From: a virus
Strand: one strand, 5' to 3'
Length of the DNA: 23,119 nucleotides
IMG/VR virus record: IMGVR_UViG_3300046787_000263
Span: 1-23,119 of that record
In this document: piece after piece, positions 3-22,783 of the stretch
Layout: every line of letters starts with the position of its first letter
Numbering within the stretch: the stretch's first letter is position 1
Notes under the pieces: generated by a model
The model's input: the letters and a program-made list of their open reading frames with translations, nothing else
What the model was told of the DNA's origin: nothing
Database searches by the model: none
Translations under genes and position numbers: made by a program

Positions 3-875
3 CGTGTAGGTGGGAAATTGGGAAGTGTTTGGGAATCATTTGACGTGCCGAATGATTGGATAGATTGCACCAAAAAATCATGTACATGTGGTGCGGATCT
101 TTTTATTCCAAAAACCAAAACAAAAGAACATAAAATATTACTACGACGTAGTAATGGGGAAGAAACACAAGCATCACTAAGAGACAACGAGCAAGAATCG
201 TTTGTTGCGATGGAGAGAACTCACGCAAGCAATCAAAAACAAATATACTGGGAAATTGGCAGACGTTGTAATTATGACTGTGGATATTGCTGGCCGTGGA
301 TTCACAATAATACTGATCCTCACAAATCTCTAGAAGAATTAATGAAAGCTACTCATTTGATAGAAGAGAAGTTCACAAAAGGTGAATCAGTGAACTTCAT
401 TATCAGTGGAGGCGAGCCTACCGCAAATAAAGATTTCTTGGACTGGCTACGATATCTTAATGCATGTGGACATCATGTTAGCTTGCACAGTAATGGCAGT
501 CGTAAGCCGGATTATTACAAAGAGATAATACATTACGGCGATCTCAATTTAAGTGTTCATTTTGAATTTTACAATCGAGAAAAATTTGTTAAGGTAGTAG
601 AGGCGATAACCAAAGAAAAAGTTGACAGACACAATAGAGATGTAGGTCATTTAGAAATCAAGATGATGATGGCTCCCCATAATAGGGATGAAGCGCTATT
701 ACTTGAACAGCAACTGAGAGATATACCAGAATTCACAAACTATTGTACTTGGGCAATAGTACCGATACGAGGAAGTTTAGAAAATAAATTTGCTGTCCCT
801 GGATCAGCTAGTGGAAGCGATATTATGATTGGCTACACAAAAGAAGATTATTTACTATTCGGCGATAGAAAATAA
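3..875 (+). CDS. Tandem radical SAM protein, 5'-truncated by window edge
   Basis: The reading frame is open through the left edge; the first full codon is at base 3 and the visible part is 290 residues. The TTG at 18 is an ordinary internal leucine codon, not a start. The first 40 residues (RVGGKLGSV, then CTKKSCTC at about residues 22-29) align with the SPASM-like tail of the minus-strand radical SAM protein (KIGNRIGHV, CTKTMCHC). A second, complete radical SAM signature follows: CNYDCGYC (Cys 89, 93, 96), which binds the [4Fe-4S] cluster, and SGGEP (about 135-139), the SAM-binding region. The natural reading is rSAM core 1 plus SPASM (mostly outside the window) followed by rSAM core 2. Core 2 stops at LFGDRK without its own cysteine tail, where the paralogue continues for about 110 residues. 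The substrate is unknown. It converges with the minus-strand operon. Radical SAM identity is firm; the tandem arrangement is inferred from the fragment. Confidence 0.85.
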   Translation, partial: RVGGKLGSVWESFDVPNDWIDCTKKSCTCGADLFIPKTKTKEHKILLRRSNGEETQASLRDNEQESFVAMERTHASNQKQIYWEIGRRCNYDCGYCWPWIHNNTDPHKSLEELMKATHLIEEKFTKGESVNFIISGGEPTANKDFLDWLRYLNACGHHVSLHSNGSRKPDYYKEIIHYGDLNLSVHFEFYNREKFVKVVEAITKEKVDRHNRDVGHLEIKMMMAPHNRDEALLLEQQLRDIPEFTNYCTWAIVPIRGSLENKFAVPGSASGSDIMIGYTKEDYLLFGDRK

Positions 876-962: not shown

Positions 963-1913
963 TTATACCATTTCTTTAGTGCTCATGATGTCATAGTTAC
1001 AGTGACACATCGTTTTTGTGCATATGATAGGTTCTGTTGGCAACAGTATTTCATCGTCCATGACGTGACCTATTCTATTGCCAATTTTACACCAGCCTCG
1101 ATAGACATTACCTCCTAAATCAACAATCAATTGTTCTACTCCAGAATAGCATTTCCATCCACTCCAATCATTAGTTTTTTCACTAATGAAACGATGCGCA
1201 CTTGACACTACGGTATTACCATCAGCATAAACTTTACGCATCGCGCCACGATAATAATTAAAAGATTTCGTGTACTTTATGTGTTTGACGATCAATTCAT
1301 GCTGCTTATCGAAAATATTTTGCTGAGCTGGAGTGTAATCAAACACTTTATCTCCGAAATCATGAATTAATGGCTGTAGTGCCATGCTGATGTCGCCTAA
1401 ATTTTTTACTTTGTTTGCAACAGCATAGCAAAAATCAAATTTTTCAGGACTCATCATGATATTCACATGAGTTCGAACGTCTTGATGGATCATTTTAACG
1501 ACATCAATGAAATGATCAGCATCTGCGTGTTCCGGATGAAAACTTAAACAAACATGATCAAAGTATTGTTTGTTTTCTTCCCACCATCTCAGGGTCCTAC
1601 TTCCATTGCTTATTAATCCCACCTTTGCTCCAAGCTCGGTACAGTACTGACATATCTCGACAAAGTGCCGATACATCGTCACTTCTCCGCCAGTCATTTC
1701 AAAATAAACTTTTCTAGGAGCTGCTTGATCCACCACTCTCTTTATAAAGTTCTTTACTTTGTCTAATTCTGGCCAACGAATCGTTCCGTTGTGTAGATTC
1801 TCAGGGCAATAGCTACAGCTATAATTACAAGTGTTACCCAAGCACCAATTCACGACAAACCAATTTTCATGATCTGGATTACTATGGACCAATTTAATAT
1901 AATCTGGCTTCAT
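963..1913 (-). CDS. Radical SAM protein with SPASM-like C-terminal cysteines
   Basis: The product is 316 residues. The radical SAM signature CNYSCSYC (Cys 29, 33, 36) should hold the SAM-cleaving [4Fe-4S] cluster. TGGEV (74-78) corresponds to the GGE SAM-binding motif and LISNGS (100-105) is a typical core strand. The C-terminus carries Cys 255, 275, 298, 303 and 305 in a pattern like the SPASM/Twitch auxiliary-cluster domain (CYSG, then a strand, GWC, then CTKTMCHC). Members of that group modify peptides, proteins or small molecules by radical chemistry; the substrate here is unknown. The ATG at 1913 directly follows the stop codon of the upstream glycosyltransferase-like gene (TAA at 1914-1916), with GGAA about 11 bases upstream, so translation is probably coupled. 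It is the last gene of the operon. The tail of the convergent plus-strand gene is clearly similar, so the two are paralogues in opposite orientation. Confidence 0.88.
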   Translation of the reverse strand: MKPDYIKLVHSNPDHENWFVVNWCLGNTCNYSCSYCPENLHNGTIRWPELDKVKNFIKRVVDQAAPRKVYFEMTGGEVTMYRHFVEICQYCTELGAKVGLISNGSRTLRWWEENKQYFDHVCLSFHPEHADADHFIDVVKMIHQDVRTHVNIMMSPEKFDFCYAVANKVKNLGDISMALQPLIHDFGDKVFDYTPAQQNIFDKQHELIVKHIKYTKSFNYYRGAMRKVYADGNTVVSSAHRFISEKTNDWSGWKCYSGVEQLIVDLGGNVYRGWCKIGNRIGHVMDDEILLPTEPIICTKTMCHCNYDIMSTKEMV

Positions 1914-2864
1914 TTACCAATTCTCTTCCTGACGTATTACGTCTATTTCTTTTATCATAGGATCGCGATTGTACCAACCACGACTTATATAGCTTTTGAA
2001 GAATCTACTGCTGTCGGCATCCACTTCAACTATTCCCGTATTCAAGTATCTATTCAATTCAATTGCGATATCACGACATGTCTTCTCATCGTCATTACAG
2101 TGCAACTCCCATAATTTATCCAGTGCATCGAAGTCACGTACATCAGTGTAATCCCAATCTCGCAACATAAGATAGTGTGTGCCTAATCTTGCTCCTAGAA
2201 TTGCCCAAAATCCATTATCAACATCTCTGCCCAACGTTTGCCATATGCTCAAATTCTGCAAGTTTCTACGCCACACATATTTTTCGAAATTCTGTTTATC
2301 ATTCTTGTTTGGCATCACTCCGTCCTTGCTGCACATTTTCACGCCTTCGCGAAATCCTGCTCGCCATGCTTGTTTCGCACTTTGATTTGGATATGTGATT
2401 GAATAGCAGTTATGCATTGGCCAATATAGCGGATCAAAACAAAATTCTATGTTTGTTTTATCAGAACCATCAGTGTTTTCATGGGTTTTCATATTCATGA
2501 TATATTCTCGTGTCCAAGAACTCATGCCACCATTGCCGTAATACAGACCATTAATATGATTTTTTGCGCGCCACCGAAATTGTGCGTCTTTGTTATTTTT
2601 GGTGATTGATAGTATCACTGTTTCAAACGATGGATCGGGTAGATTATCTCCGTCTATCAATATGAAACGCTCAGTGTCACTGGCCATTGCCGCAGCCTTA
2701 TGCGCGTTGTCACTTCCTTTAACTCCATCCACTCGTTTGACCCATGGCCATTGATTTTTTATTTTTTGATAGAATTCTTCTTTTTTCGGTTCATCGTAAC
2801 TTAGATATATCCAGTCTAAATCTTCTACATGAATTTGATCAATTACTTCCTCTGGTAATTTCAT
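1914..2864 (-). CDS. GT-A-like glycosyltransferase with DGD motif
   Basis: I chose the ATG at 2864, giving 316 residues. It has GGAAG ten bases upstream and overlaps the preceding gene by only 26 bases. The frame is open further up, with a TTG at 2957 and ATGs at 2942, 2921, 2918, 2897 and 2891, but those starts lie deeper inside the upstream gene. The first strand, WIYLSYDEP, is followed by RVDGVKGSDNAHK and then FILIDGDNLPDPSF. DGD (residues 71-73) fits the metal- and sugar-nucleotide-binding DxD of GT-A glycosyltransferases. I recall similar proteins in marine T4-like phages, annotated as glycosyltransferase or hypothetical. The sugar donor and acceptor are unknown. It sits between a small conserved gene and a radical SAM gene whose ATG abuts its stop, so the three are probably expressed together. 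Fold assignment is likely; activity is unproven. Confidence 0.7.
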   Translation of the reverse strand: MKLPEEVIDQIHVEDLDWIYLSYDEPKKEEFYQKIKNQWPWVKRVDGVKGSDNAHKAAAMASDTERFILIDGDNLPDPSFETVILSITKNNKDAQFRWRAKNHINGLYYGNGGMSSWTREYIMNMKTHENTDGSDKTNIEFCFDPLYWPMHNCYSITYPNQSAKQAWRAGFREGVKMCSKDGVMPNKNDKQNFEKYVWRRNLQNLSIWQTLGRDVDNGFWAILGARLGTHYLMLRDWDYTDVRDFDALDKLWELHCNDDEKTCRDIAIELNRYLNTGIVEVDADSSRFFKSYISRGWYNRDPMIKEIDVIRQEENW

Positions 2865-3195
2865 ATGATTGTTGCTTCCAATATTGCGCATTAGCATCTG
2901 TACTAATGATACTGACATCATATTTACTACATGCGACTCCATCTGTATTTTTTTCAAGTTTAAACACGTGCTTTATTAGATGAGTGTATATTATTTTTTT
3001 ATCTTTGACTAATACATCCGGTCTAGCCTCTGTGTACTGATCTTGGGTGATCACTATATAGTCGCCAGGAAGATCCTCAGTAGTATACGATATCACCTTT
3101 CCGGTAGAATCATAGTATAATCTAAATTCTAGAATTTTTGGTTTAATTGGAGTAATCAGACTAAAAAAATCACTAATCAATTGTTCATCAGACAT
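2839..3195 (-). CDS. Small conserved phage protein of unknown function (118 aa)
   Basis: The start is the ATG at 3195 (MSDEQLISDFF), with AAGGA eight bases upstream at 3204-3208. The GTG one codon earlier is less likely. It overlaps the stop of the preceding glycosyltransferase gene by 8 bases. The protein is acidic at the N-terminus and then mostly predicted strands: ILEFRLYYDSTGKVISYTTE, then DLPGDYIVITQDQY. There is no signal peptide, membrane segment or cysteine pattern. The EFRLYYD...GKVI...DLPGDYIVI pattern looks like a conserved hypothetical family I associate with large aquatic myoviruses, but that is from memory. Its position between glycosyltransferase genes suggests a partner or accessory role, which is inference. 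Its 3' end overlaps the next gene; how far depends on which start that gene uses. Confidence 0.7.
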   Translation of the reverse strand: MSDEQLISDFFSLITPIKPKILEFRLYYDSTGKVISYTTEDLPGDYIVITQDQYTEARPDVLVKDKKIIYTHLIKHVFKLEKNTDGVACSKYDVSIISTDANAQYWKQQSYEITRGSN

Positions 3196-3958
3196 CACGC
3201 AATTCCTTGACGATAGTCTCGCTAAAGTCTTTTATATGATAGTGAAATGGATATAGCTGAGGATAAGTGTTAATTCTCAACAAGTCTGGACGTATTTCAT
3301 ACAAGAACTCGTTAGGCCAATATTCACTTATGTTTTTGTTTATGGCTCTTTTCATATGTATCATGCTCATGCCAGTAAAGGTAGGCAACGTGCATTTCTC
3401 TGTGCCTAACAACGAAGCTGCAATAGCATATACTACATCAGTAGTGGCGTTATCATCTGGACAATAATTCAACAATTCTCGGTAGCTATTCCAATTTTCG
3501 AATATATCCCTGACTATGGTAAAGAATTCACATGCAAGATCACTTTTTTTAAAATACGTGATTGCGTTATACGTTTGTGGTAATTTGTTCTTGACAAATA
3601 TCTGTCTATAATACGTTTCACTAGATATTTCATTTTTAAAGTTTCTGATCGTAGTACATATATTTAAGTCTCTAGTCTTCAGTATGTCCCACCAGTGATC
3701 GATACTTCTTGGTATATACATATCAGCTTCTAGTTTTATGGTATATTCATATGGACTAGCTTCGTATACTTGCCAATCATTTATTAATTTCCATTCACTT
3801 TCCGGAGCCAAATCACCATGAGGCAGTTCATTAGCACCTATGATTGTGACGTTTGCAGATGGCATCACGTTCAGGATACTGTCTCTAAGTACCTTTGCGC
3901 AACTCGTATAATCAGTGGTATGAGTATTCTGAGCCATGATTACATAGCCTTTATTCAT
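3188..3958 (-). CDS. GT-A-like glycosyltransferase, EAD variant of DxD
   Basis: The product is 256 residues. The N-terminus GYVIMAQNTHTTDYTSCAKV is a Rossmann-like first strand and helix that resembles the upstream neighbour (GVVLFAHNNEHTDYYRMASW), so the two are probably a tandem duplication. The strand YEYTIKLEADMYIPR carries EAD (77-79) where the neighbour has DTD; this occupies the DxD metal-binding site with Glu in the first position. It continues through a tryptophan-rich helix (DHWWDIL) and NAITYFKKSD. The start codon overlaps the preceding stop as ATGA (3955-3958), and GGAG lies five bases upstream of the ATG, so translational coupling is likely. Donor, acceptor and biological substrate are unknown. 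An inactive or scaffolding paralogue is possible given the altered DxD. Confidence 0.68.
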   Translation of the reverse strand: MNKGYVIMAQNTHTTDYTSCAKVLRDSILNVMPSANVTIIGANELPHGDLAPESEWKLINDWQVYEASPYEYTIKLEADMYIPRSIDHWWDILKTRDLNICTTIRNFKNEISSETYYRQIFVKNKLPQTYNAITYFKKSDLACEFFTIVRDIFENWNSYRELLNYCPDDNATTDVVYAIAASLLGTEKCTLPTFTGMSMIHMKRAINKNISEYWPNEFLYEIRPDLLRINTYPQLYPFHYHIKDFSETIVKELRDV

Positions 3959-4722
3959 ATCATCTCCATCAAGTTATCTTTGTGTAGCATGTGAAAGTCA
4001 CAGTTGTCAACCGTGATATAGGTGGTTCTGTCATTGATAGTTGCGACTAGATTATACTTGGTATCTGTTGACTTAGACACTGTAGCATTATTACTGACGT
4101 GTAGCAAATCCCATGGAATGAAATCCTTTTTATGTTCAACCTGTCCATTTACTGTTCGCAGGGCTATCGTTAATGCGTAGTCATTTCTATAAGTAGCTGG
4201 ATTAAATCCATGTATATTTGCATAGTGTTGATAATTATTTTGCACCATTTCTATCATAGAAAATATCTGCTCTGTGCGTTCTGTTTTAGTAAATCTAATG
4301 ACCGTGGCCCAGAAAGACTGACTACTTAGCTTGCCGAGCATTTCTGACTTAATGTCTTCCATTAAATATCTGCAATTTCTGTGACATAAGAAGTCAGTAT
4401 CGTAATCAAACAACTTTAATAATTTAGCACTGTTAATTACATAGTCGGTATCTAAAACTATAGTGTCATCGTAAGGTGTCAGTGTATATACCTCATATCT
4501 ACCTTTATTGATCCATTTACCTTGTTTCCTGTGGTTGTTTCTATCAGGCTCTCTAATAATCACGCGATCAAACTTGTAATTTGTGGTGATGCTAGTATCA
4601 TCTGTTATGATCGTGCATGGCAAATCCAAGAATCTGCTAACTCGCTCAGCTGTCCAGGAAGCCATTCTATAATAATCGGTATGCTCGTTGTTATGAGCAA
4701 ACAATACTACTCCTCGTGTCAT
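3955..4722 (-). CDS. GT-A-like glycosyltransferase with DTD motif
   Basis: The product is 255 residues. An N-terminal Rossmann-like strand (GVVLFAHNNEHTDY) is followed by a second strand PCTIITDD. A basic stretch (about 60-75, RNNHRKQGKWINKGR) may contact the nucleotide sugar. YDDTIVLDTDYVI then places DTD at residues 91-93, the expected DxD site of a GT-A enzyme. The pattern resembles the protein encoded immediately downstream. The gene overlaps both neighbours by four bases (ATGA at 4719-4722 and at 3955-3958). I see no strong Shine-Dalgarno sequence, so it may depend on coupling to the 100-residue gene upstream. There is no signal peptide or membrane segment, so the product is probably cytoplasmic. 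Possible targets include virion proteins, host surface glycans or modified bases; the sequence does not discriminate. Confidence 0.7.
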   Translation of the reverse strand: MTRGVVLFAHNNEHTDYYRMASWTAERVSRFLDLPCTIITDDTSITTNYKFDRVIIREPDRNNHRKQGKWINKGRYEVYTLTPYDDTIVLDTDYVINSAKLLKLFDYDTDFLCHRNCRYLMEDIKSEMLGKLSSQSFWATVIRFTKTERTEQIFSMIEMVQNNYQHYANIHGFNPATYRNDYALTIALRTVNGQVEHKKDFIPWDLLHVSNNATVSKSTDTKYNLVATINDRTTYITVDNCDFHMLHKDNLMEMI

Positions 4723-5021
4723 CGTTTAATGGATAATTCTTGATATTCCTTATGCCATTCTGACATAACTTCGTCATATGTTGATTGAGCTACTCCTAGT
4801 AGCTCTTTTGTGTTTATTTGAACGGGAACATCATAATAATCAAGCAATATAGTAGTACGAGGTGCTGATTTTAAGTAACTCAGTAGTTCCGTAGTTACTT
4901 CCCAAGTACTATTCTGATTTGTTATTATCAATTGCGCTGAATATTTCTCTTCCAATAAAATTCTAGATTGGTGATGATTGAATCTAGTGCGTACACTAGA
5001 TTCTAGTTTTTTAATATCCAT
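4719..5021 (-). CDS. Conserved phage protein of unknown function (100 aa)
   Basis: The product is a small, soluble protein without cysteines. The N-terminus MDIKKLESSVRTRFNHHQSR is predicted helical, the middle has strands (TTILLDYYDVPVQINTKELL), and the C-terminus is a charged helix (YDEVMSEWHKEYQEL). I believe it belongs to a hypothetical family common in large aquatic phages, but I cannot name a function. It is the first gene after the tail block: a hairpin at 5025-5049 ends three bases before its ATG. The only Shine-Dalgarno-like sequence (AGGGG, eight bases from the ATG) lies inside that hairpin, so its translation may depend on RNA folding. Its stop overlaps the next ATG as ATGA, tying it to the glycosyltransferase genes downstream. 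Confidence 0.72.
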   Translation of the reverse strand: MDIKKLESSVRTRFNHHQSRILLEEKYSAQLIITNQNSTWEVTTELLSYLKSAPRTTILLDYYDVPVQINTKELLGVAQSTYDEVMSEWHKEYQELSIKR

Positions 5022-5024
5022 GAA

Positions 5025-5049
5025 AAATACCCCTATTGTAGGGGTATTT
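5025..5049 (-). terminator. Hairpin at end of tail block, possible terminator or attenuator
   Basis: An 11-base-pair perfect stem (AAATACCCCTA paired with TAGGGGTATTT) with a three-base loop is followed on the minus strand by a run of T. It lies 29 bases after the stop of the last tail gene, so it fits an intrinsic terminator. It also abuts the next gene's ATG, and its descending arm contains that gene's only Shine-Dalgarno-like sequence (AGGGG). It could therefore also control initiation of the accessory operon. Confidence 0.75.
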
Positions 5050-5078
5050 AGAATACTACGTCTGCTCTTATTTTTAAA

Positions 5079-6023
5079 TTATGTTACTGTTTGAGTTCCC
5101 CACGTATTGGATAAATTAATGGTGGATGGTGGCTTTATAGTTGTAACAATCGCTGTTCCCGCTGTTGGTGGTGGATTTGGTCCATAGTATAACCCTGAGT
5201 CAGTGACGTTAAACACCACAGTGAACACAATGACTGAACCAGTTGATGTTGCACTGACAGTGATACTGCTATTAGTATAATATCCTACAGCGTCTCGTTG
5301 AACTATAAGTGTTTTGGATACTCCATTCAAATCATAAAAGCCATACTGTGTGTTGTATGTAGAAGTTGTGCCTCCTCCTCCTACTTTTTTAAATCCGGTA
5401 TACGTACTAGGCGGCACAATGACCGCAGTAGCTACGCCAGACGGACTACTTAGAATGAGTGATCCTGCATCCGAGCAAAGTTGACTGAGATATGTGTCTA
5501 TGTCATTCTGTGGTAATCCGCCACTAGTTGGATGACTCAGAGTCAGCTGAATCTGGCCTCCAGAATTAAAAAAGTATCTTGCAGCATCGGCGCCGCTATT
5601 GAAAGTAACAGTAGCAGTCATCGTCAAACTATAACTTGCCGCAGTGCCTGACCACGCTGCACTGTTTGTTTTTGTGGTAGAAGATGTACTTCCTTGTGCG
5701 GATGCGTTCAATCTTCCTGTATTCACTGCCGCTAAATTCGCGGTCAATGCCGACAAATAACTAACTTGGCCACTTGATGTTGGCGCTGTAATGGAAGTAA
5801 TACTAGTATTTTGATGCGCTGCCATCGTCGATATAGTGTTAACCACACTAGCCCAGTTACTAGCTGATATGGTGTCGCCAGATGCCACTGTTGCTAGGGA
5901 AGGTTGTCCGTAGCCACTATCAGCAGTGCCAGTACTCCAAATATTGTTTACGTTAGGGGTATTTGTACTCACGAACCCGTTAAGGTCAGTAGCCTGTATT
6001 ATCCCGTCTACTGAATATGTCAT
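5079..6023 (-). CDS. Virion structural protein, probable tail/fibre component
   Basis: The product is 314 residues, rich in Ser, Thr, Gly, Ala and Val and almost free of cysteine, as expected of an extended beta-rich virion protein. The N-terminal half contains GYGQ (37-40), the segment ISASNWASVVNTISTMAAHQ (52-71), and then a predicted helix and strands. A sequence typical of a phage structural family follows: ATVTFNSGADAARYFFNSGG (residues 137-156). I recognise the ARYFFN-GG block from large-phage tail proteins. The rest is beta-rich and ends in WGTQTVT. The ATG at 6023 has a strong Shine-Dalgarno sequence, AAAGGTGA, at 6030-6037. It is the last gene of the tail block, followed by a hairpin. 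A specific role (fibre, collar or baseplate decoration) is not visible. Confidence 0.75.
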   Translation of the reverse strand: MTYSVDGIIQATDLNGFVSTNTPNVNNIWSTGTADSGYGQPSLATVASGDTISASNWASVVNTISTMAAHQNTSITSITAPTSSGQVSYLSALTANLAAVNTGRLNASAQGSTSSTTKTNSAAWSGTAASYSLTMTATVTFNSGADAARYFFNSGGQIQLTLSHPTSGGLPQNDIDTYLSQLCSDAGSLILSSPSGVATAVIVPPSTYTGFKKVGGGGTTSTYNTQYGFYDLNGVSKTLIVQRDAVGYYTNSSITVSATSTGSVIVFTVVFNVTDSGLYYGPNPPPTAGTAIVTTIKPPSTINLSNTWGTQTVT

Positions 6024-6068
6024 ATATCATCACCTTTAGTATTAAAATAAGTGTTCATCTGGTTATCT

Positions 6069-6917
6069 TTAACTATAGGTTGCGTTTAGTGTATACCATT
6101 TTGTGGCTGATACTGACACGTAATCCAATCTTGAACCAGCGTCCAATGTATACGCTGCGTTTGCAGACCCTGAGTTTATCGAAGCACTAGTATTTGGATA
6201 CACATTAACTGCCGTAGCACTGCTGTTAACAATAGTTAATCTCATACCACCAGTAGTTACTGGCAATTTAACTCCAGAGTTAGCTGGAACTGTACTTACT
6301 ACATTTATTTCGGAAGTGAGCAATGTTGCTGTTCCCTGTGTTGTTCCGGCGGCCGATATTCCTGTTGTGGTATTATGAATGTAGTACCCAGTACTCGTGA
6401 AGTTAACCCCAGATACATTGCCTGAAGCATTTACATCCACAGCGGATACATTGCCAGATGCGATTACATCTATTGCGTTTACATCATTTGATGCGGTAAC
6501 ATTCACCGCAGATATATCACCTGATGCCACAACGTCAACTACAAACAGATTAACAGTCGTAGTGTCACCTGATGCAGTAATGTTTACAGCATCGATGTCT
6601 CCATTAACCGTTACATTGCCAAATGTTGGACTGCTTCCGATACTCACGACAGTAGCCCAAGTCGGAGATGACTGAGTTCCGGTGTTGTACTTAACTACGC
6701 CGGTTGCAACATCATACCAAAACTGGCCTTTAAATGGCACAGAAGGGCCAGTAGAAGACGATGCGAAATTCTCAAGCATCGAAACCATATTCTGATCCAC
6801 CGGACTTCCATACCCAGCATAATTGCGGCCAGGAAGAGATATACTCGTACTAGTAGTATTAAGTGTTCCATCTGAGACCGTAATTGTCCCGCCTGAATAT
6901 GTTAGTGTATAAGCCAT
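6069..6917 (-). CDS. Probable tail fibre or baseplate-attached protein with 11-residue repeats
   Basis: The product is 282 residues. Its N-terminus (about 1-70) matches a family seen in many large phages: a short beta segment, then LPGRNYAGYGSPVDQNMVSM, LENFAS, and GQFWYD. Residues 104-174 hold six copies of an 11-residue unit (consensus ASGDVSAVNVT), one followed by a five-residue insertion. These suggest a beta-solenoid or trimeric shaft. The C-terminal 100 residues (GGMRLTIVNSSATAVNVYP, ending KWYTLNATYS) look like a beta-sandwich tip common in fibre and needle proteins. The ATG at 6917 has a clear Shine-Dalgarno sequence, ACGGAGAAGA (6924-6933), and a late-promoter-like CATAAATA at 6940-6947, so it may have its own late transcript. 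The structural role is likely; which appendage it belongs to is not visible. Confidence 0.78.
   Translation of the reverse strand: MAYTLTYSGGTITVSDGTLNTTSTSISLPGRNYAGYGSPVDQNMVSMLENFASSSTGPSVPFKGQFWYDVATGVVKYNTGTQSSPTWATVVSIGSSPTFGNVTVNGDIDAVNITASGDTTTVNLFVVDVVASGDISAVNVTASNDVNAIDVIASGNVSAVDVNASGNVSGVNFTSTGYYIHNTTTGISAAGTTQGTATLLTSEINVVSTVPANSGVKLPVTTGGMRLTIVNSSATAVNVYPNTSASINSGSANAAYTLDAGSRLDYVSVSATKWYTLNATYS
6396..6608 (-). repeat. 11-residue protein repeat inside fibre-like gene
   Basis: It encodes residues 104-174 of the 282-residue protein: VNGDIDAVNIT, ASGDTTTVNLF, a VVDVV insertion, then ASGDISAVNVT, ASNDVNAIDVI, ASGNVSAVDVN and ASGNVSGVNFT. The 33-base unit is degenerate at DNA level but clear in protein. 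The alternating hydrophobic residues and Asn/Asp-Gly/Ser turns suggest one beta-strand rung per repeat. Confidence 0.8.
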
Positions 6918-6939: not shown

Positions 6940-6947
6940 TATTTATG
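6940..6947 (-). promoter_or_regulatory. Late-promoter-like CATAAATA upstream of fibre-like gene
   Basis: CATAAATA, followed by TA, differs from the T4 late consensus TATAAATA at the first base. It lies 22 bases upstream of the ATG at 6917 and overlaps the last codons of the preceding gene. It matches the octamers upstream of the gp6-like and giant genes, which supports a phage-specific late promoter. Confidence 0.5.
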
Positions 6948-7572
6948 TTGTTATTAAATTGGTAAGTGCCTGTATTCGCACTGTGTAATCAATTTGTATC
7001 TGTCTATTCAGTGATTTTTGCACGGGATGGAATATCACATGTGTTAACAGCCTGGTGACGACATTGCCATCACCGTCAGTGCCCCAATTGCCCAATAATC
7101 CTAATTCATCGAATACATAACTACCATCAGTGGTAGTACCGTTATCAAAGGCGTCTTGGCCGCTAGGTTCGCCGTAGTCAAGAGTGCATTGCACTAGAAT
7201 ATCGGTATATAGATTAGTTGCTACATGTAGCACAGACATCTTGTTTTTTGTTGGATCAGTGTTACTGATTAATTTATCATCGACAATTTTTGCATACGTC
7301 TGATTATACAGCTCTGCGTTTTGTCCAGTGGTGTTAGGTGGCAAATAGGTTATAAGACCCGTACTGTCTATACTTGCTCCACCGTTTCCAAAAGCCATTT
7401 GATACACCGTTCCGTATCCTCGATCACTCACAGTAGCAGCTAATGCTTCTGAAAAGTTTTCGTAATTTATAGCGTTTTTCTTGTCAACGAATACTTCCCC
7501 TGTATTAGGGTCATGTATTTTTAAAAATCCTTCAACACTTAGTGTAATATTAGTTTTCATATCTGTGTCCAT
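6943..7572 (-). CDS. Virion structural protein, tail/baseplate associated
   Basis: The start is the ATG at 7572 (MDTDMKTN), which overlaps the TAA of the 54-residue ORF as TAATG; an ATG three codons upstream (7581) is in frame but less well placed. The product is 209 residues. It begins with a beta-rich segment, VEGFLKIHDPNTGEVFVDKK (13-32), then AINYENFSEALA and YQMAFGNGG (58-65), TGLITYLPPN, and a C-terminal half ending in HVIFHPVQKSLNRQIQIDYT. I recognise the LKI-DP-TGEV-V-K-NAI-YENMSEA / AFGNGG arrangement from structural proteins of large aquatic myoviruses, where it is annotated only as virion structural. The low cysteine content and lack of a signal peptide fit virion assembly in the cytoplasm. 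It is probably translationally coupled to the small ORF before it. Confidence 0.78.
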   Translation of the reverse strand: MDTDMKTNITLSVEGFLKIHDPNTGEVFVDKKNAINYENFSEALAATVSDRGYGTVYQMAFGNGGASIDSTGLITYLPPNTTGQNAELYNQTYAKIVDDKLISNTDPTKNKMSVLHVATNLYTDILVQCTLDYGEPSGQDAFDNGTTTDGSYVFDELGLLGNWGTDGDGNVVTRLLTHVIFHPVQKSLNRQIQIDYTVRIQALTNLITT

Positions 7573-7736
7573 TAACTGCATCTCATTTTTAGTATGACTT
7601 CACCCGATTCTGTGTCCGTTATTTTCAACGAACTGCTCAGACAGAATCCCATCTTCTCATTTGGTTTTCTTGCTGGCACTGGCGGGATTGGTTTTGCCGC
7701 TAATGAGCTTTTTTCGGTAACGTTATTAGTAGTCAT
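7572..7736 (-). CDS. Small 54-aa ORF resembling the N-terminus of the next tail protein
   Basis: This ORF fills the gap between the giant protein's stop (7760) and the next tail gene. It runs from ATG at 7736 to TAA at 7574-7572, and its stop overlaps the next ATG as TAATG. The first 28 residues are polar and proline-rich (KPIPPVPARKP). The rest, LKITDTESGEVILK (37-50), matches LKIHDPNTGEVFVDK in the following 209-residue protein. It looks like a short paralogue or a remnant of a tandem duplication retaining only the first beta-hairpin. The upstream sequence is AAAGATAAATAAATCA, without a classic Shine-Dalgarno sequence. The TAATG junction and the absence of another gene in the gap support it as expressed; function is unknown. 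Confidence 0.6.
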   Translation of the reverse strand: MTTNNVTEKSSLAAKPIPPVPARKPNEKMGFCLSSSLKITDTESGEVILKMRCS

Positions 7737-7759: not shown

Positions 7760-10700
7760 TTAAGTTCTTAGTAATACTGCGATAGGATCAGTACACAACG
7801 TTAGCGTGGTATTTGCCACTGGAATATCTGATGGTGGACCATACCACCACTGATCACATACATCTGGCATATCGTAAGTTTCTGCAACATCTTGGCCAGA
7901 ATTGTTGTAAACTTTCATTCCGCCAAACTTATCCACTGTCAATACGTGATCCCAGGTAGGCAATGCATCATACGTAGTAATTGTCATTACTAAACTATCA
8001 GTGATGTAACCTGCGATTAATTCCTCAGGTCCATAACCATGCATAAACTCGCCGCCATCGACGTTATAGTAATTATCTGGATTTGGCGTACCAGTGAATG
8101 AGTAACTAGATAATTGCGCATCCAATGTAATTTCGCCAACTGAAGGAACAAAATCTTGACCTTTAACGATAGCGTCATCAAACTCTACGCCGGACATCAA
8201 TTGTGGCAAGTCCTTTCCAGGCATAGAGGTAGTTGGCGAGTAGTAGTCACGTATTCTATTTGCGGCGGTAGGCTCGACTCCATCCCATCCAGGATATGCT
8301 CCCCATGCAGATGAATCCCAGCCTCCAGTCGCACTGTACGACACTCGATCAAATCTGATGGTTAATCCAAATTCTCTGACAGGTGCACCAGAAGTCAAAC
8401 ATTCCGCTCTTGCGCATATCGCCACTGTTCCGGAACCAGCAGAAATTAAGTCTACTCTGCCGTCTGCTGTGGCTAATTTACTGCCATTGACTTTAACGTT
8501 CGCATCAGCTAAATGGGAAGCGGCAGTAGTACCATTGATTCCACGTGTAGCTCCTTGTAGTTCATACACAGTAGGACTAATATATGCCAAACTGGTATAA
8601 CTGATCAGTTCCGAACCTATCATCACAGTGCCCGTAAATGGCAACAGTGTGGCAAACCATGGTGACTGATTTTTTACCTGCATAGTTGTCGCAGATGCTG
8701 ATATCCCAGCAGTCAATTGAGTTATCGCCGCGTAGGTAACTAATGCTTTGTCATAGCTTTCGTACAAAGATATCGTATTAGCATCTATTGATCTAACATA
8801 ATAATAGCCGTCGTTTAATCCAGTTACTGGCGTTACGCCTGCTGTATACAATACACTATCGCCAGTGATGAATGGATGACCGGTGATAGTTATCGTATTG
8901 TTTGTGAGATCCACATCTCCGCTAGTAAACGACGCAGATATACTGCTAGCTATTACTATTTCGGGAGCTACTGCGTATCCAGATCCACTATTAACAACGT
9001 TAACTCCGATCAATGTTTCTCCTGACATCACAGGTTCCAATATTGCCTCTATTCTTGGAGCTGGATATACACCCGTGTCTATATATGCTGATATTTTTGG
9101 AGGTTCAGTATACCCTCTGCCAGTATTAAGAACGTAGACTGCTGGGAGAAGTACATAAACTATCTCGTGTTCAAAATGCTCACTAACGAATGTGTTTGAA
9201 ACTCCTCGAACCAATCCACTAATAATGCCAGAAGACAAGTCAATTGAGTCATACGACATTTTTTCTTGTCCAATAACAATAAATCCATTAGATGGCATGC
9301 CATAGGCATTAGATAATACTGCACTAGTCGCGACAGTGGTTATATCCGTTTGCAACATCGCAACTGGATACATTTTTACAGATATCTCTCCAGACGAGAT
9401 AGTAGGAAGAGTGTAATCTTGTAGTTCAGTATTGTCTATGGCCAATCCATAATTATTAAACCACTGACTATATTCAGTCTCAGTCCATATATCATTGCTT
9501 GGCAGGTATTGATTTTGGTCGTATGTTGTCTGATATACTAGTTCAGGCGTCTCATAAGAACTGGTAGTAGTATTGTACTTCGCTGGTAGATCAAAGTCAG
9601 TAACATTCCCGAAGTAATTATCATCACCTGTATAGCTAAACACGAAGTCTTTAATATATACGTGGTAAGGTTTAACCTCGTTAATGAATCCCTCTAAGAA
9701 TTCTTGATTGTCACGTTGATATTTCTTATAAGGTAACAAACTTCTTATCTTGTGATTTACATCAACTAAGCTGGTCTTATTAAGCCATGGTAGATAATTA
9801 TTTTGTTCTTGGCTTTCGCTCTGGATGAATTTGAACATCAACATCAAACTTAGATTGCGATTGATCAGCATCTCGTCGATATAGCATTTTTCATTCAACC
9901 AACGAACTATCCAATATATTTCAGTGACCAATGTTTTGTCCCATGATACGCCCCATCCATTGCTTGACCAGCCGTACAAGTTCCAAACATTAGGTAGAAA
10001 CTGTATGGTACTGTTCTCTGCTCCAATTCTTTTCCATGGATTAGCGAGTGTGTTGTCGTATACATAAAATTCACTGTTACTGAATTTGTTTGTTTGTACT
10101 TTGACTATCATCCCATTTTCCACTAGGATGTTTGATCCATTTATGCCTACCAACAACGTGTTTTCGGAAATTGTCTGTAGATCATTAACACTACTTACCT
10201 CCATCGTGGGCTTGGTTGAATCACTGTAGCCACTGGCCCACCAATTGGTGTATTCCCAACAGTCATTTACATTGTAGGTCAATCCAACCTTGAACAGATA
10301 ACTCAAGTCTTTGTACTCAACTGCTGGAATGTTAATCAACAATTCGTTAGCATATGAAATGTAATTTTGTAATGCTAACAATCTATCCACAAACATACTT
10401 TGTCTTGGTCTAAAGTCTGTTCCGTATTTTGCCAATGCTGGTAAGGTAGGATCTGGAATTGGATTATAATTACTATCGAAACCACTAAAGCTTTCGATAT
10501 ATTTTAGGTATAGACCAGTTGGATAGTTAACCAACGGAGTAGGCAGACCACTCAGAAAATCATTTACGTTTCCGTCTCTTATTAATTCCCAACTAGTGTG
10601 CTTTTCATCTAGACTATCAGGTATACCATATCCAAGATGCAATGCGCTGGAATTTGATTGAATGTATTCACCGCTATTCATCAATGCAACAACGTTGGTA

Positions 10701-13700
10701 GTTATTGGTGCCAGATATGCAATTCCACTAGACAATGGGTTCAATACGTACGCACTCAGTGTCATTGGACTCAGAGTTTTCCCATCAGGCACTGCATCAA
10801 AATTTTTAACCCAGAAATAGTATTTTGTCAATAGACTGTTTGTAGATCGATCTACTACTGTAGCAGTATTGAACTTGTCATAATACACTGGATATCCTGA
10901 ACCAGAATAGTTGAGAGGAGTTACTGTACTTTCTACCCAAGTATAAACGTCTGCTGTACTTCCTGGGAATGCTTTACCCCAGTTCTTCGCATTATATGAT
11001 TTATCTGGTTGATGATAATTCAATAGTCTGACTGTATTCAAATTTAGCCAAGTATTACCAATATGATCGTCAAGCCAGGATACACCATTAACACTGTATA
11101 CTGCTGGATCTACTGATTCCATGAAATCTAAATTGGTTGCAACCGCTCCTAGCATTTTGCCCAGACTAGGATCAATGTAGTCTAAGTATTCCAACGTTGT
11201 GTTGTTAGCAACATTGTATATACTAATGTTGTTCAATGCGTTGATATCAACTACCGTTAACGGTTGTTTATCGATATACCAAGTCGTATAATTTGTTGGT
11301 TGGGTCGTATAGTCTCTAGTCCATGTTGTGTCGTATAATGACACACTTCCTGTTGTAGATGATCCGAGAGTAGCTACCAAGATAGTAGAATCTGTGTAAG
11401 CCAGACTGTATCCAAACTTAGGCATCTGAGAATATATTTGACTGGATGTTATGTATTGTCCAAAAGCATATTTTCCAGGATTTGAAATAGACTCGTTTGA
11501 TGCTGGCAAGTAATCGAATTCGTATACTACTCCTTGATCACTGAACGAATCAACAAATGTTGTAGCATAGTTATCAAATATTGTGTCATCTTGATTATAG
11601 TTTTCAGTGTAATCAAATGTGGTAGGACTAGTCAAGTCTGCTGTTATCCCGCTAATCAACAAGCTATCCTGTTCGTTCATTTTCACGCTATATCCAAAAG
11701 ACGAAACATCATTTAAGTCTACATTACGAATAACTTGTGTGTTGGTGTACAGAGATATTCCCAAATTCGCCAAACTAGTTTGTGGACCGGTTATATCAAT
11801 GATGTTATACAACACTTCTGGTGTATTGACAACATAAGTTATAGTAAGTACATTTCCACTATAGCTAGCGATAATATTTGTCGGTGTTGAGGTATTAATA
11901 TCGTCTACTATTTGTGCTATATTACCGCTATAGTTGACTACGTATCCATCAATGAATAATTTACCAGTCTGTGTTCCTGTAAATGTTGATGTGCACACGC
12001 CATAACGCTGGCCTCCATTTATATAGTGGTATGCTCCTCCCTCTACTCCAGCTACATTATCTACAGTAGATGTCTCGTACGGCACTCCAACTATTACATC
12101 AGAGCCGTATCTATTAGTGTCAACACTGTTGCCAAAGTAAGCATTTGCTTGAGGGGCTAAACTTTGAAATCTTTGAACGAAATCGATATATCCAGTACTA
12201 ACACTCACAACACTACCAGCAACTGGTGTATAAGATAAAGTCACTGAAGTTCCTGTCACCGATGCTGATGAATCCAATACATCGTTGACATATACGTATG
12301 CTACATTGTTAGGAGATGCATCAGATAAAGTAAAGGTAGCAGTCGAACCAGCGGCATAGAAACTCTGTGATCTTCTGGAATACACATACACTGCACCAGC
12401 GCCACTTAGTCCTAAAATTTGTTCATTTGGCGCGCCTACTACTAATTTAGCTCCATCAGTTGATACTGCCAAAGATTGTCCCCATTTAGATCCAGCAGTA
12501 ACTGCTGAATCTGTCAATGTGTATGTATATTGATACGTAGTGTTTTTGGAGTAGATCGCTATAGACTGATTTGTGTAGTCAGCGACATATAACCACGAGC
12601 CATCAACGCTCACTGCGATTGCTCCTGTTAATGATATATGTGCTGAAACGTCAACAACTTCAGACAGGCTTAGTAAGTTAGTAGTATTATCCAACTCATA
12701 TACATAAACCAAATTGTCACCAGGACTAGAACAATATGCATAATTGCCGAAAGCTCTAACTTGTGTTTCTGCGCCAGTACCACCGATCAGCGTTTGCGTC
12801 TCGGATCCAGCGTAATATCGATATAAATTCCCATCACCGGTTGCCACGAGTGTTTCAATAGTACTAGAATATGCGACACTATAGGTGATATTTGAAATAC
12901 CACCGTATGTAGTTCTTTCTTTGTATGCAGGAGTTGCTGCATAGACTACCCATTGATTATCAGTATAATAGTCTGCCCATATTTTTCTAGAATTCCACGC
13001 AGTATATGGCAATAGACTGTTACTAGCGTCGCTAGGTTGCGCAAATCTTCTAGACACTAATTCAAACCCAATGCCGTTAACCGACAGTCTACTTACAGTG
13101 GTGTCCAAAACCAACGCGATAGTTATTGCTCTAGTAGATTTCACTGAACTTACCACATAGAAACCATCTATTCTATAGTCAATATTGGATATAGCTACTA
13201 GATTGTCAACTGATAATCCATGTTGATTGGCAAAAGTCACAGTCACGGTGCCATTTAAATTATTATCTATTTGAACAATTGTGTTGTTAAGGCTAACCGC
13301 GGTGAATATATCCCAGCTTGTCTTATAATTTGCAATCCATACATAATCGCCGGCGTATAAATTACCAATGTTACTAGGATCATCGTTTAAATTCTCAAAA
13401 TAGTATTCTTGGAATTTGCAATCACCTAGATTGACAAATCCTGCACTCGGCAATCCTCGCTCTACTGTGTAGCTAGTACGATCTGCGGGTATGAAGTTCG
13501 CAGACAATGGTACACGCTCATAGTTAATTAACTCGTCGATCCCAACCGATTGCTGAACTCCTGGCACTGATCCGCCCACTTCACTGAAGCCTATCATAGT
13601 TGGATTGCCAGTCAAGATGTTTTGTTGTAACAACGTCTCGACAAAATTTCGGTTCAATATACTACCAAAAGACCCAGTCTTGATGGCCCAATTTTCTTCA

Positions 13701-16700
13701 ACGGAGTAATCAATTTGACCTTGATCAAATTGTGCAGTCTTAAACGAATCAACTAATAGTTTTGTGCCCTTGGTTTTAACTATATTTTTGTACACATTTA
13801 TCTGTGTAATATCGCTAAGGTCTGCGGCCGTGAGATAGTCACGTGGTCTGAAGCCTATCAAACTAAACGCTAACAAATCTACGTCATTTTCCAAGTTCGC
13901 TCGATTGGTATCGTAATAGAATTCAGCTTCATATGCCATAGTACTTGGATTTGGCAATAGACCTGATTTCACTTGTCCGTAATCCGTCTTGATCCAATCT
14001 TCTTTACTGAATTCAGAGTCAGGCTCTATCAGGACTTTAGAGGTGTAATAATTACTCTTATAGGTAACAATTATTCCTTTTGGATATTTTGTGTTTGGTG
14101 TCCATTCCTTGATATTATTTTCATTTAGAATAAATCCACTAGCATTCACGAATCCATTCCATTCACCAGACTTGTATCCTTGTAACAATAGTCTTGGCTG
14201 TCGTAATCCCGTAGTTAAATTATAAATCGTATCATTGAATGACGTATTATTATCAAACACAATTGCATGTTCTATCGCATGTAAATTCAAATTAGTGTAG
14301 GCTACAGTGTCTCCTTCACTCAGAATATCTACTGTGAATTTTTCGTTTTCGCGATGAATGCAAGCATCTTGCATCTGTACTGGTAGTAAATTTTGATTCA
14401 ATATAAAATTTTGATTTTGTATTGATAATGGTTGTACTACTAGTCCGTCCCTGGCAACAGTAAACATTGTTGCGTTTGGATTCAATGATATTATACTTCC
14501 GACTTCCCAGCCCTGTTGGGACCATGACATATACTCCTGTACCATCCTAGTCCAGTCGTAAACTACTCCGTCTTCTATATTAGAAGACTGTACGCCCTGT
14601 GTTGTCAAGAATCTTCCATAATCAAGTAAGAACTCACCCACAGCTTGAATACTGTGGAACAATGTTCCATATGGCACTATAGCAGTTCTATCAACATATG
14701 ACTCTTTACTCACTTGAATAGAGATGTTGCCAGCAGTTACTGATTTTAGTACTCCCAACTTCGGAACTGATATGGTAAAATATTGTTTATTTCTGCTATT
14801 ACCCCATACAGTGTAACCAGTTTCCACCTTTTGCACAATAACAGAGCTATACGTTATAGTTTCAGCGGGTGGATTATCGTACAACAGCACCGCGTAATTC
14901 TCATCTGGAATCAATAGACTGGAATTCTTACTATTAGGAGTGGCTTTTTCCACCAAGAATTTCAAATAGTTCTTCGCCGTAAAACCTGCCATGTTGTACA
15001 CTAGTCTTACATCCAGATTATCAAGTAACGCTCTAACTACCGTAGTTCCGTCTGCTCCTTTTTGATTTATGTAGTCTACCACCCAGTTGATATAGCTATG
15101 TTTAGCAACATTATTGCCATATATTTGAACCGTTCTGGGATCTAAATGATATCTGCCATCATACAAATATTGATCATATGTACTGTTATACTTGTACAAA
15201 TCCCTATCAACGAACAAATTAAAAAATTGCACAGGTTTTGTTAACGCCAATAATCTCATTAGATCGAACGGCCATGAACTGCTCTTTAGATAACTTGCTT
15301 CCGCTGGGGCGCCGTCGCCCACAACCCAATCTCTATTGAATGTCAGTGTGTTATAATTTCCCATAACACTAACAAACGGACTTACTAACTCACCTAAACT
15401 ATCAACTGGAAGCACTGACAATAAATCTGGACGTATTTTTTTAGTATTGATATACGGTGCGCCATCGTTCCATACATAACCATTGGCTATATCTTGCCAC
15501 ATGTAGGTGTTACCGCTGGTGTATGGTGCTGCACCATAGTGCGTATCCCACCAACTTGGCTTTGTATTTAAACCTAGCATTTCCCATGGAGCATTGGCAG
15601 GATTATCAGTATCATATAACCAATTATATATTCCTCGCCAGTAACCTTGTAATAATGCCTGTTGTGTTATCTTATTACTAGATTGATTGTAGTTATATGT
15701 AAATTTGTTAGTCGAACGATATGTTTGTGTTTTATAATCTATTCTATTTGCGCCTACCCAATTCAAAAATCCAACACTGTATATATCTAATATCTCAGAC
15801 CTGGAGTATTCGGTTTCTCTGAATTCTCCTGGCACAACATCATCCGCTGTTAACGGTGTCTCACTAGATACTTTATAATTGTTGTAGATTCTCTTTTCGA
15901 ATTCCAACAAAACAATATCTCTAAAATCATCGAGCTGACCTGTTACAACATCGTAATTACCGTATAATTTATTATAACTTCCATCATGTCCTAAAATGAA
16001 ATATGTCGGAACACTATAAGTGTCATCTAACACGACTGCTGGCACAAATATAGGATATAATCCCAATTTAGATGGCGTGTTTGGACAATAACTACCATAT
16101 GTCTGATTATACACTTTAACGGTGATGGTATCGTTAGCTTCTATTGCATAATTGACCTGAACGGAAGGAGAAGTAGTACTGACAATATAGTCGATATTTT
16201 TCAACAATTGAGTTACTACTGTTTTACCTGATTCGATTCTATTCAAATAGATTCCTAAACCCAAGTAATTAGCTTCAGTGAACATGGTCGGTGTCCATAT
16301 GTCACCTAAAGTAAATATCGCAGAAGTCGCACTTGCCGCGAACGTGTATGTATTGGACAAAAACGGATTGCCACTGAACAGCATGTCGCTCCAGAAAAAC
16401 GCGGAACTATTGTTTTTGTTCGAACCTATCTTATAGATGATATCGTCCAACACATCACTTGGCGAGGTGTATACACTGTAATCTGTTGATGCTGCTAAGT
16501 CAACTAACAAAGTCTTGTATAACTGATATTGTTCGCTATTGAACTGTATTGCGTTTAACGGATTCGCTTCTTGTTTGCGTAAGAATACCCCAGGTAATAC
16601 CAAGCTAGCACTATTTTGAATGATAGCAGTGCCATACTGAGTCAACGTTCCAAGATCGTGGATATTATTATCACCGAACATTGTTCCGGATACGCCTGGA

Positions 16701-22746: not shown

Positions 22747-22755
22747 GTTTAAAAA

Positions 22756-22761
22756 TCCTTT
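22756..22761 (-). promoter_or_regulatory. Shine-Dalgarno that decides the gp6-like start
   Basis: AAAGGA on the minus strand is nine bases upstream of ATG 22746 and inside the ten-codon extension that starts at ATG 22776. It argues for the shorter protein. Confidence 0.7.
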
Positions 22762-22766
22762 AAATA

Positions 22767-22774
22767 TATTTATC
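22767..22774 (-). promoter_or_regulatory. Late-promoter-like GATAAATA upstream of the gp6-like gene
   Basis: GATAAATA, followed by TATTTA, sits 20 bases upstream of ATG 22746 and ahead of the Shine-Dalgarno sequence. It differs from the T4 late consensus TATAAATA at the first base. Confidence 0.5.
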
Positions 22775-22783
22775 ATGCATTTT

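What the first reader, a model, noticed from the sequence alone, without database searches (positions are those of the whole stretch)
963..5021. Six-gene overlapping cassette of glycosyltransferase-like, radical SAM and small proteins in a phage late region
A 100-aa protein, two related GT-A-like proteins, a 118-aa protein, a DGD glycosyltransferase-like protein and a SPASM-type radical SAM protein are joined by overlaps or direct abutment (ATGA at 4719 and 3955, an 8-base overlap at 3188, TAA/ATG abutment at 1913), directly after the tail genes. A second radical SAM protein converges on them. This looks like a co-expressed modification pathway. Candidate targets are the tail fibres encoded just upstream, host surface glycans, or a peptide or base. 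I know of no described system with this gene set, but that is a limit of memory, not a search result.
Basis: partly seen in the sequence, partly recalled or inferred. Interest (0 to 1): 0.68.

Follow-up and report, generated by a model that had tools for sequence, protein, structure and literature searches.

The report
Phage tail-linked sugar-attachment gene module
Hundreds of uncultured aquatic phages carry, right behind their tail genes, a fixed set of sugar-transferring enzymes followed by a changeable set of radical-chemistry enzymes, which most likely decorate the phage's own tail with an unusual sugar.

Summary
The six-gene cassette is real and far beyond chance. The order p212-p282-p314 (tail genes), then p100-GTb-GTa-p118-GT347, recurs in IMG/VR contigs, where GTb and GT347 each have 500 or more relatives. 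Seeded with the tail gene p212, 67 of 68 contigs with at least 6 kb downstream have p314 and all three GT-type genes, and 64 have radical SAM genes. The first five cassette genes are the fixed core; rSAM1 is one of several interchangeable tailoring genes (2-13 radical SAM genes per large contig). GTb is a GT-A protein close to glycogenin (GT8); GT347 is only probably GT-A. rSAM1 is a radical SAM protein with five invariant twitch/SPASM-like cysteines. Some phages fuse a GT347-like domain to rSAM1, and bacterial rSAM1 relatives lie beside flagellin or polysaccharide genes. No family looks membrane-bound, and the unit starts at a T4-late-type motif. Best reading: cytoplasmic glycosylation of a tail protein, probably p314, with radical SAM tailoring of the sugar. 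Host-surface glycan modification is the main rival. GTb, GT347, p100 and p118 have no relatives in 50,697 phage records, so function is untested. Comparable loci are known in pelagimyophages: new variant of a known kind.

The parts
4719..5021 (-). p100, 100-aa protein, first gene of the cassette; perhaps an assembly or specificity factor for the tail protein
   Evidence: Immediately upstream of GTb in 78 of 80 GTb-seeded loci; no Pfam, PHROG or PDB match; role inferred
3955..4722 (-). GTb, GT-A glycosyltransferase of GT8/glycogenin type, DTD motif
   Evidence: Model pLDDT 92.0, pTM 0.91; glycogenin-1 Z 16.5, 3.2 A over 194 residues; Foldseek GT-A hits E <= 6e-7; profile hit to glycogenin E 7e-4
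3188..3958 (-). GTa, paralogue of GTb with EAD in place of DTD
   Evidence: Aligns with GTb over its length; phrog_1903, unknown function, E 2e-7; not folded on its own
2839..3195 (-). p118, 118-aa protein of unknown fold; perhaps an assembly or specificity factor
   Evidence: Found between GTa and GT347 in 56 of 80 GT347-seeded and present in 76 of 80 GTb-seeded loci; no confident family match; role inferred
1914..2864 (-). GT347, probable GT-A glycosyltransferase with invariant DGDN
   Evidence: DGDN invariant in 32 members, 69% mean column identity; one member weakly hits GT2 Pfam; model poor, pLDDT 64.5, best structural neighbours are nucleotide-diphosphosugar-type enzymes at Z <= 7.1
963..1913 (-). 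rSAM1, radical SAM protein with C-terminal twitch/SPASM-like cysteines
   Evidence: PF04055 47.5 bits over cut-off 29.5; CxxxCxxC plus C255, C275, C298, C303, C305 invariant in 24 sequences
3..875 (+). rSAM2, second radical SAM protein, convergent, N-terminus cut by the record edge
   Evidence: PF04055 61.2 bits; relatives about 358 aa; follows or converges on rSAM1 in 20 of 46 rSAM1-seeded loci that hold it
5079..6023 (-). p314, Ser/Thr-rich (30.6%) tail-region protein; candidate glycan acceptor
   Evidence: Linked to the GT cassette in 79 of 80 and 67 of 68 loci; composition; that it is the acceptor is inference
6069..6917 (-). p282, tail-fibre-like protein; second candidate acceptor
   Evidence: Profile match to the protein after p212 in jumbo phages Phosso and Atu_ph07, E 2e-54
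6943..7581 (-). p212, tail-region structural protein used as an independent seed
   Evidence: phrog_11259 E 8e-66; about 50% identical to proteins of cultured jumbo phages
5045..5052 (-). TCTAAATA, T4-late-promoter-like motif 23 bases before the p100 ATG
   Evidence: Only TMTAAATA in the window; in relatives seen before p282 (38/102) and p100 (17/82), almost never before the inner genes

Best explanation
p100-GTb-GTa-p118-GT347-rSAM1 is a late, co-expressed, cytoplasmic pathway that builds and tailors a short glycan on a phage tail protein, most likely p314 (or p282). The GT-A enzymes attach and extend a sugar on hydroxyl side chains; rSAM1, and rSAM2 or other radical SAM enzymes in relatives, then alter that sugar by radical chemistry; p100 and p118 are assembly or specificity factors. 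SHOWN: gene order and co-inheritance, overlaps, GT-A fold of GTb (predicted model), radical SAM motifs, GT347-like/rSAM1 fusion, no membrane protein. INFERRED: that the product is a glycan, that the acceptor is p314, the radical reaction, the roles of p100 and p118.
For: Tail-gene seed p212: 67 of 68 contigs carry p314 and all three GT genes, 64 carry radical SAM genes. GTb seed: p314 within three genes upstream in 79 of 80. Of 16 relatives of the Phosso p212, the one with p314 has the cassette and the 15 without have none. GT-A fold of GTb. GT347-like domain fused to rSAM1 in seven loci, four distinct sequences, each behind a c13 gene that shares a domain with p314 (E 2e-5). A bacterial rSAM1-rSAM2 pair lies between two flagellin genes, and other relatives lie beside GT2 or DegT genes. 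No transmembrane-like segment in any of the families. Late-type motif at p100. A sugar-nucleotide-type epimerase (PF01370) in 11 of 14 large relatives.
Against: No virion glycoproteomics and no cultured carrier. Linkage to a tail gene does not prove that it is the substrate. The unit has its own start at p100, and terminator-like hairpins separate it from p314 in many relatives. Authors of comparable loci proposed host O-chain modification. One bacterial relative lies beside a polysaccharide-type ABC exporter. One p212-seeded contig has p314 without the cassette (L300).
Confidence: 0.5

Rival explanations
1. The enzymes modify a host surface glycan (LPS core, O-chain or capsule) to change the receptor or block superinfection by other phages.
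For: Proposed for GT8 genes in the pelagimyophage host recognition cluster (PMC7029224) and for cyanophage GT clusters (PMC7824862). Bacterial rSAM1 relative beside an ABC-2 exporter. LgtC, an LPS galactosyltransferase, is among the structural neighbours of GTb (Z 13.8). Variable tailoring genes would suit variable host glycans.
Against: The core is fixed to p314 rather than scattered. No membrane-bound transferase, flippase or polymerase in the cassette or its tailoring genes. Late-type motif, when surface change for superinfection exclusion would be expected early.
Confidence: 0.28
2. The radical SAM enzymes modify a tail protein or peptide directly (RiPP-like side-chain chemistry), and the GTs act in parallel or on the modified residue.
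For: Cultured jumbo phages Phosso and Atu_ph07 carry a radical SAM operon close behind homologous p212/p282 genes, with a protein ending in CHXS repeats and a radical SAM protein nearest to peptide maturases. The nearest solved relative of rSAM1 by profile is the peptide epimerase YydG, E 3e-5, core domain only.
Against: p314, p100 and p118 have no Cys-, Gly- or repeat-rich core peptide. rSAM1 is fused to or lies beside GT genes. No profile relation between p314 and the CHXS protein.
Confidence: 0.12
3. The cassette hypermodifies phage DNA bases.
For: Phage GTs can glycosylate DNA (cited in PMC12619734). A thymidylate-synthase-family gene occurs in 7 of 14 large relatives, though it looks like an ordinary thymidylate synthase.
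Against: Placement and linkage with tail genes and a late-type motif; structural neighbours of GTb act on protein, glycan or lipid acceptors. The TET/JBP search found nothing but its controls did not ring either.
Confidence: 0.04

Closest known systems
Pelagimyophage host recognition cluster (HRC), PMC7029224
   Same: Island next to the large baseplate and tail genes of T4-like aquatic myophages, with GT8-type glycosyltransferases, tail fibres and radical SAM gene cassettes
   Different: Described there as hypervariable and non-syntenic, with an O-chain role proposed; here the GT core is fixed in order behind p314, with p100 and p118, and no relative of rSAM1 in cultured pelagiphage exceeds weak core similarity (HTVC008M, 31.6% over 98 residues)
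Mycobacteriophage virion glycosylation (Freeman et al. 2023, as cited in PMC12619734)
   Same: Phage-encoded glycosyltransferases that decorate virion proteins, there capsid and tail tube subunits
   Different: No radical SAM enzymes are mentioned in the passage read; different phages; glycan shown there, not here
Cultured jumbo phages Sinorhizobium phage Phosso and Agrobacterium phage Atu_ph07
   Same: Homologous gp6-like, giant structural, p212 and p282 genes, followed closely by several radical SAM genes
   Different: No p314 and no GT cassette; radical SAM proteins are not members of the rSAM1/rSAM2/c0 families; a CHXS-repeat protein suggests a peptide substrate
Bacterial flagellin modification loci
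   Same: A Bdellovibrionaceae MAG has an rSAM1-rSAM2 pair between two flagellin genes (L051), i.e. a surface filament protein beside the same enzymes
   Different: Only one such locus seen; no GTa, GTb or GT347 there; modification not shown

Membership tests
GT-A glycosyltransferase, GT8/glycogenin-like (GTb) | GT-A fold over the whole protein | tested here: met
   Z 16.5 to glycogenin-1 over 194 of 255 residues; Foldseek prob 1.00, TM 0.4-0.5
GT-A glycosyltransferase, GT8/glycogenin-like (GTb) | DxD metal/nucleotide-sugar motif | tested here: met
   LDTDY in GTb, second D (D93) invariant in 35 GTb/GTa sequences; GTa has EAD
GT-A glycosyltransferase (GT347) | GT-A fold | tested here: inconclusive
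   DGDN invariant; poor model; no Foldseek hit at E <= 0.001; Z <= 7.1; one of 32 members hits GT2 Pfam weakly
Radical SAM superfamily (rSAM1, rSAM2) | PF04055 over cut-off and CxxxCxxC | tested here: met
   47.5 and 61.2 bits against 29.5; C29, C33, C36 invariant in rSAM1
SPASM/twitch radical SAM (rSAM1) | Auxiliary-cluster cysteine domain | tested here: inconclusive
   Five invariant C-terminal Cys, but Pfam SPASM PF13186 not listed
NCBIfam NF033640 N_Twi_rSAM (rSAM1, rSAM2) | Score over curated cut-off 170 bits | tested here: not met
   17.5 bits for rSAM1, 29.1 for rSAM2; tailoring family c0 does meet it in three of four copies, 268-329 bits
Viperin-family antiviral radical SAM (NF038283) | Score over curated cut-off 180 bits | tested here: not met
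   61.3 and 44.4 bits, core domain only
Gtr-type O-antigen modification cassette | Membrane flippase and membrane-bound transferases | tested here: not met
   No transmembrane-like segment in any cassette or tailoring family over about 120 loci; control membrane protein detected
Phage virion glycosylation system | Glycan present on a virion protein | not testable with these tools
   Needs mass spectrometry of virions or co-expressed protein
Phage virion glycosylation system | GT genes linked to a virion protein gene | tested here: met
   p314 within three genes upstream of GTb in 79 of 80; p314 and three GTs in 67 of 68
Pelagimyophage-type host recognition cluster | Located between the VrlC-type gene and neck gene gp14 | tested here: inconclusive
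   Cassette follows a 3831-aa giant structural gene; that it is VrlC was not tested and the record ends before any neck gene

The most novel reading that the evidence does not exclude
A widespread lineage of uncultured large aquatic phages coats a tail protein with a radical-SAM-tailored glycan: a fixed three-GT core acts on p314, and interchangeable radical SAM enzymes diversify the sugar between phages, a strategy not described in cultured phages.
Probability: 0.4. Interest if true: 0.82.

Novelty: new variant of a known kind. Interest (0 to 1): 0.62.

Why it matters
Phage tails decide host range. If their proteins carry a phage-made sugar altered by radical chemistry, recognition could change through enzymes rather than through tail sequence, and radical SAM enzymes acting on protein-bound sugars would be a new activity to assay. 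The module is common in aquatic metagenomes yet its core genes were found in none of 50,697 phage records, so a frequent phage feature has gone unstudied. It gives a concrete gene set and acceptor candidate to test.

Tried and rejected
Chance overlap of ORFs: rejected by conservation. Viperin-like antiviral enzyme: far below cut-off. p100 and p118 as RiPP precursors: no Cys- or Gly-rich core and no family match. Single-protein scan with GTb found nothing, while its alignment found at least 578 relatives. tblastn of GT347, GTb, p100 and p118 sequences against 50,697 phage records: no match. Fold search with the GT347 model: nothing at E <= 0.001. p314 related to the CHXS protein of Phosso/Atu_ph07: not found. 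Sigma-70 promoter scan: fewer hits than in shuffles. TET/JBP search: nothing rang, controls included, so it shows nothing. Thymidylate-synthase search: 7 of 14, uninformative for DNA modification. My label of c7 as sulfotransferase-like rests on a GLPRTGSQ-type motif only; no Pfam, NCBIfam or PDB support. The B12-type label for c8 and GT label for c22 were not tested in a profile library for c8 and gave no Pfam or NCBIfam hit for c22.
Full report
OBSERVATION. The window is a complete 23,119-base IMG/VR record, itself a fragment. It holds a T4-like gp6-type baseplate wedge protein (19309-22776, phrog_10646, E 5e-263) and a 3831-aa virion structural protein (7760-19255, phrog_10938, E 2e-248), then p212, p282 and p314 and, on the same strand, the six-gene cassette. 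GT347 also overlaps p118, by 26 bases, if it starts at the ATG at 2864, where relatives start. rSAM2 converges from the other side and is cut off by the record edge.

CO-OCCURRENCE. Seeding IMG/VR with rSAM1 gave 46 relatives; in 24 of them GTa..GT347 is linked, and GT347 is followed directly by rSAM1 in 23. Seeding with a GT347 alignment gave at least 501 relatives; in the best 80, GTa..GT347 is linked in 77 and p314 is present in 78. Seeding with a GTb/GTa alignment gave at least 578; in the best 80, p100 is immediately upstream of GTb in 78, p314 lies within three genes upstream in 79, and GTa and GT347 follow within five genes in 77. The fairest test seeds with the tail gene p212: of 68 contigs with at least 6 kb downstream, 67 have p314 and all three GT genes, one has p314 alone, and 64 have a gene of the radical SAM families. 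The seeded sets share contigs and list only the best 80 hits, so the counts are not independent and describe near relatives. Among 16 relatives of the p212 of the cultured phage Phosso, the one with p314 has the cassette and the 15 without p314 have none of the GTs.

CORE AND VARIABLE PARTS. After GT347 the content changes from phage to phage: N-terminal-twitch radical SAM proteins (family c0; three of four copies tested score 268-329 bits against the NF033640 cut-off of 170), rSAM1, rSAM2, and families c7, c8, c11 and c22. In 14 large contigs there are 2 to 13 radical SAM genes each. In the window this part is rSAM1 followed by the convergent rSAM2. In p212-seeded contigs the gene after GT347 is a c0 protein in 49 and rSAM1 in 9, so rSAM1 is a minority choice and the window is one variant of a wider scheme.

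ENZYMES. GTb was modelled at mean pLDDT 92.0. It is a GT-A protein nearest glycogenin-1 (Z 16.5), which the joint GTb/GTa profile also finds by sequence (E 7e-4). GTa is its paralogue with EAD in place of DTD. GT347 is highly conserved (69% mean column identity over 32 members, DGDN invariant), but its model is poor (64.5) and its structural matches weak. rSAM1 is over the Pfam cut-off, with invariant CxxxCxxC and five further invariant Cys near its C-terminus. p100 and p118 match nothing known.

LINKS BETWEEN GLYCOSYLATION AND RADICAL SAM. In L019, L020, L030-L033 and L036 (four distinct sequences) a GT347-like domain and rSAM1 form one polypeptide, each behind a c13 gene; a c13 sequence shares a domain with p314 by profile alignment (E 2e-5, probability 77%). 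In the phylum of the Bdellovibrionaceae MAG, rSAM1 relatives occur in 11 of 369 genomes at E <= 1e-60. One rSAM1-rSAM2 pair lies between two flagellin genes (L051), one beside an ABC-2 exporter (L052), one rSAM1 carries an N-terminal extension that looks like a GT2 domain but has no Pfam hit, next to a DegT aminotransferase (L148), and two lie near GT2 proteins (PF00535) whose C-terminal part resembles a radical SAM domain without its cysteines (L149, L150). These contexts point to surface glycans or glycosylated surface proteins.

EXPRESSION AND LOCATION. The only TMTAAATA on either strand of the window lies at 5045-5052, 23 bases before p100; about 4.7 copies are expected by chance, so the single copy means little by itself. 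Across loci the motif is found before p282 (38 of 102) and p100 (17 of 82) and almost never before the inner genes. Many relatives have a terminator-like hairpin between p314 and p100. So p100 probably opens its own late unit. None of the families has a transmembrane-like segment. This favours cytoplasmic protein glycosylation over lipid-linked polysaccharide assembly, without excluding LPS-core-type enzymes.

INTERPRETATION. Best reading: glycosylation of a tail protein, probably p314, with radical SAM tailoring (0.5). Host-surface glycan modification (0.28) is what authors proposed for comparable islands in pelagimyophages and cyanophages. Direct RiPP-like modification (0.12) is kept because cultured jumbo phages have a radical SAM operon close behind the same tail genes together with a CHXS-repeat protein. 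DNA modification is unlikely (0.04).

NOVELTY. Phage GT8 genes, radical SAM cassettes near tail genes, and virion glycosylation are each known. The fixed p314-linked core with interchangeable radical SAM enzymes, and the fusion of a GT347-like domain to rSAM1, were not found in the papers searched; that library lacks most subscription journals. Hence a new variant of a known kind.

Noticed in passing
L049:20324-21244 (Sinorhizobium phage Phosso) and L050:21062-21952 (Agrobacterium phage Atu_ph07): Protein in a radical SAM operon close behind the p212/p282 tail genes, ending in CHTSCHASCHSSRSRR / CHSSCHASCHNSRSRR. The CHXS repeats recall His-Xaa-Ser radical SAM substrates: a possible peptide-modified phage structural protein in cultured phages.
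   Followed up: partly
L018 record (89,584 bases, G007) and L025 record (229,851 bases, G009): 13 and 12 radical SAM genes on single viral contigs, many clustered behind the GT cassette.
   Followed up: partly
L149:15622-17502 and L150:9159-10913: Bacterial GT2 proteins whose C-terminal part resembles rSAM1 but lacks CxxxCxxC, near intact rSAM1, rSAM2 and c0 genes; possibly a non-catalytic radical SAM scaffold.
   Followed up: no
L052:3447-3698 and 4678-6087: An 83-aa Gly/Cys-rich peptide near a radical SAM protein with a C-terminal Cys-rich domain in an Oligoflexia MAG; RiPP-like.
   Followed up: no
window 5025-5049: Perfect 9-base inverted repeat AAATACCCC/GGGGTATTT between p314 and p100 that overlaps the TCTAAATA motif; relatives often have terminator-like hairpins at this place.
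   Followed up: partly
window about 890-920: Palindrome ACAGAGACATATGTCTCTGT flanked by A and T runs between the convergent ends of rSAM2 and rSAM1; looks like a two-way terminator.
   Followed up: no
L300 (p212-seeded locus): The one p212-seeded contig with p314 but without the GT cassette; other genes of 235, 92 and 1162 aa follow. A natural comparison for what p314 needs.
   Followed up: no
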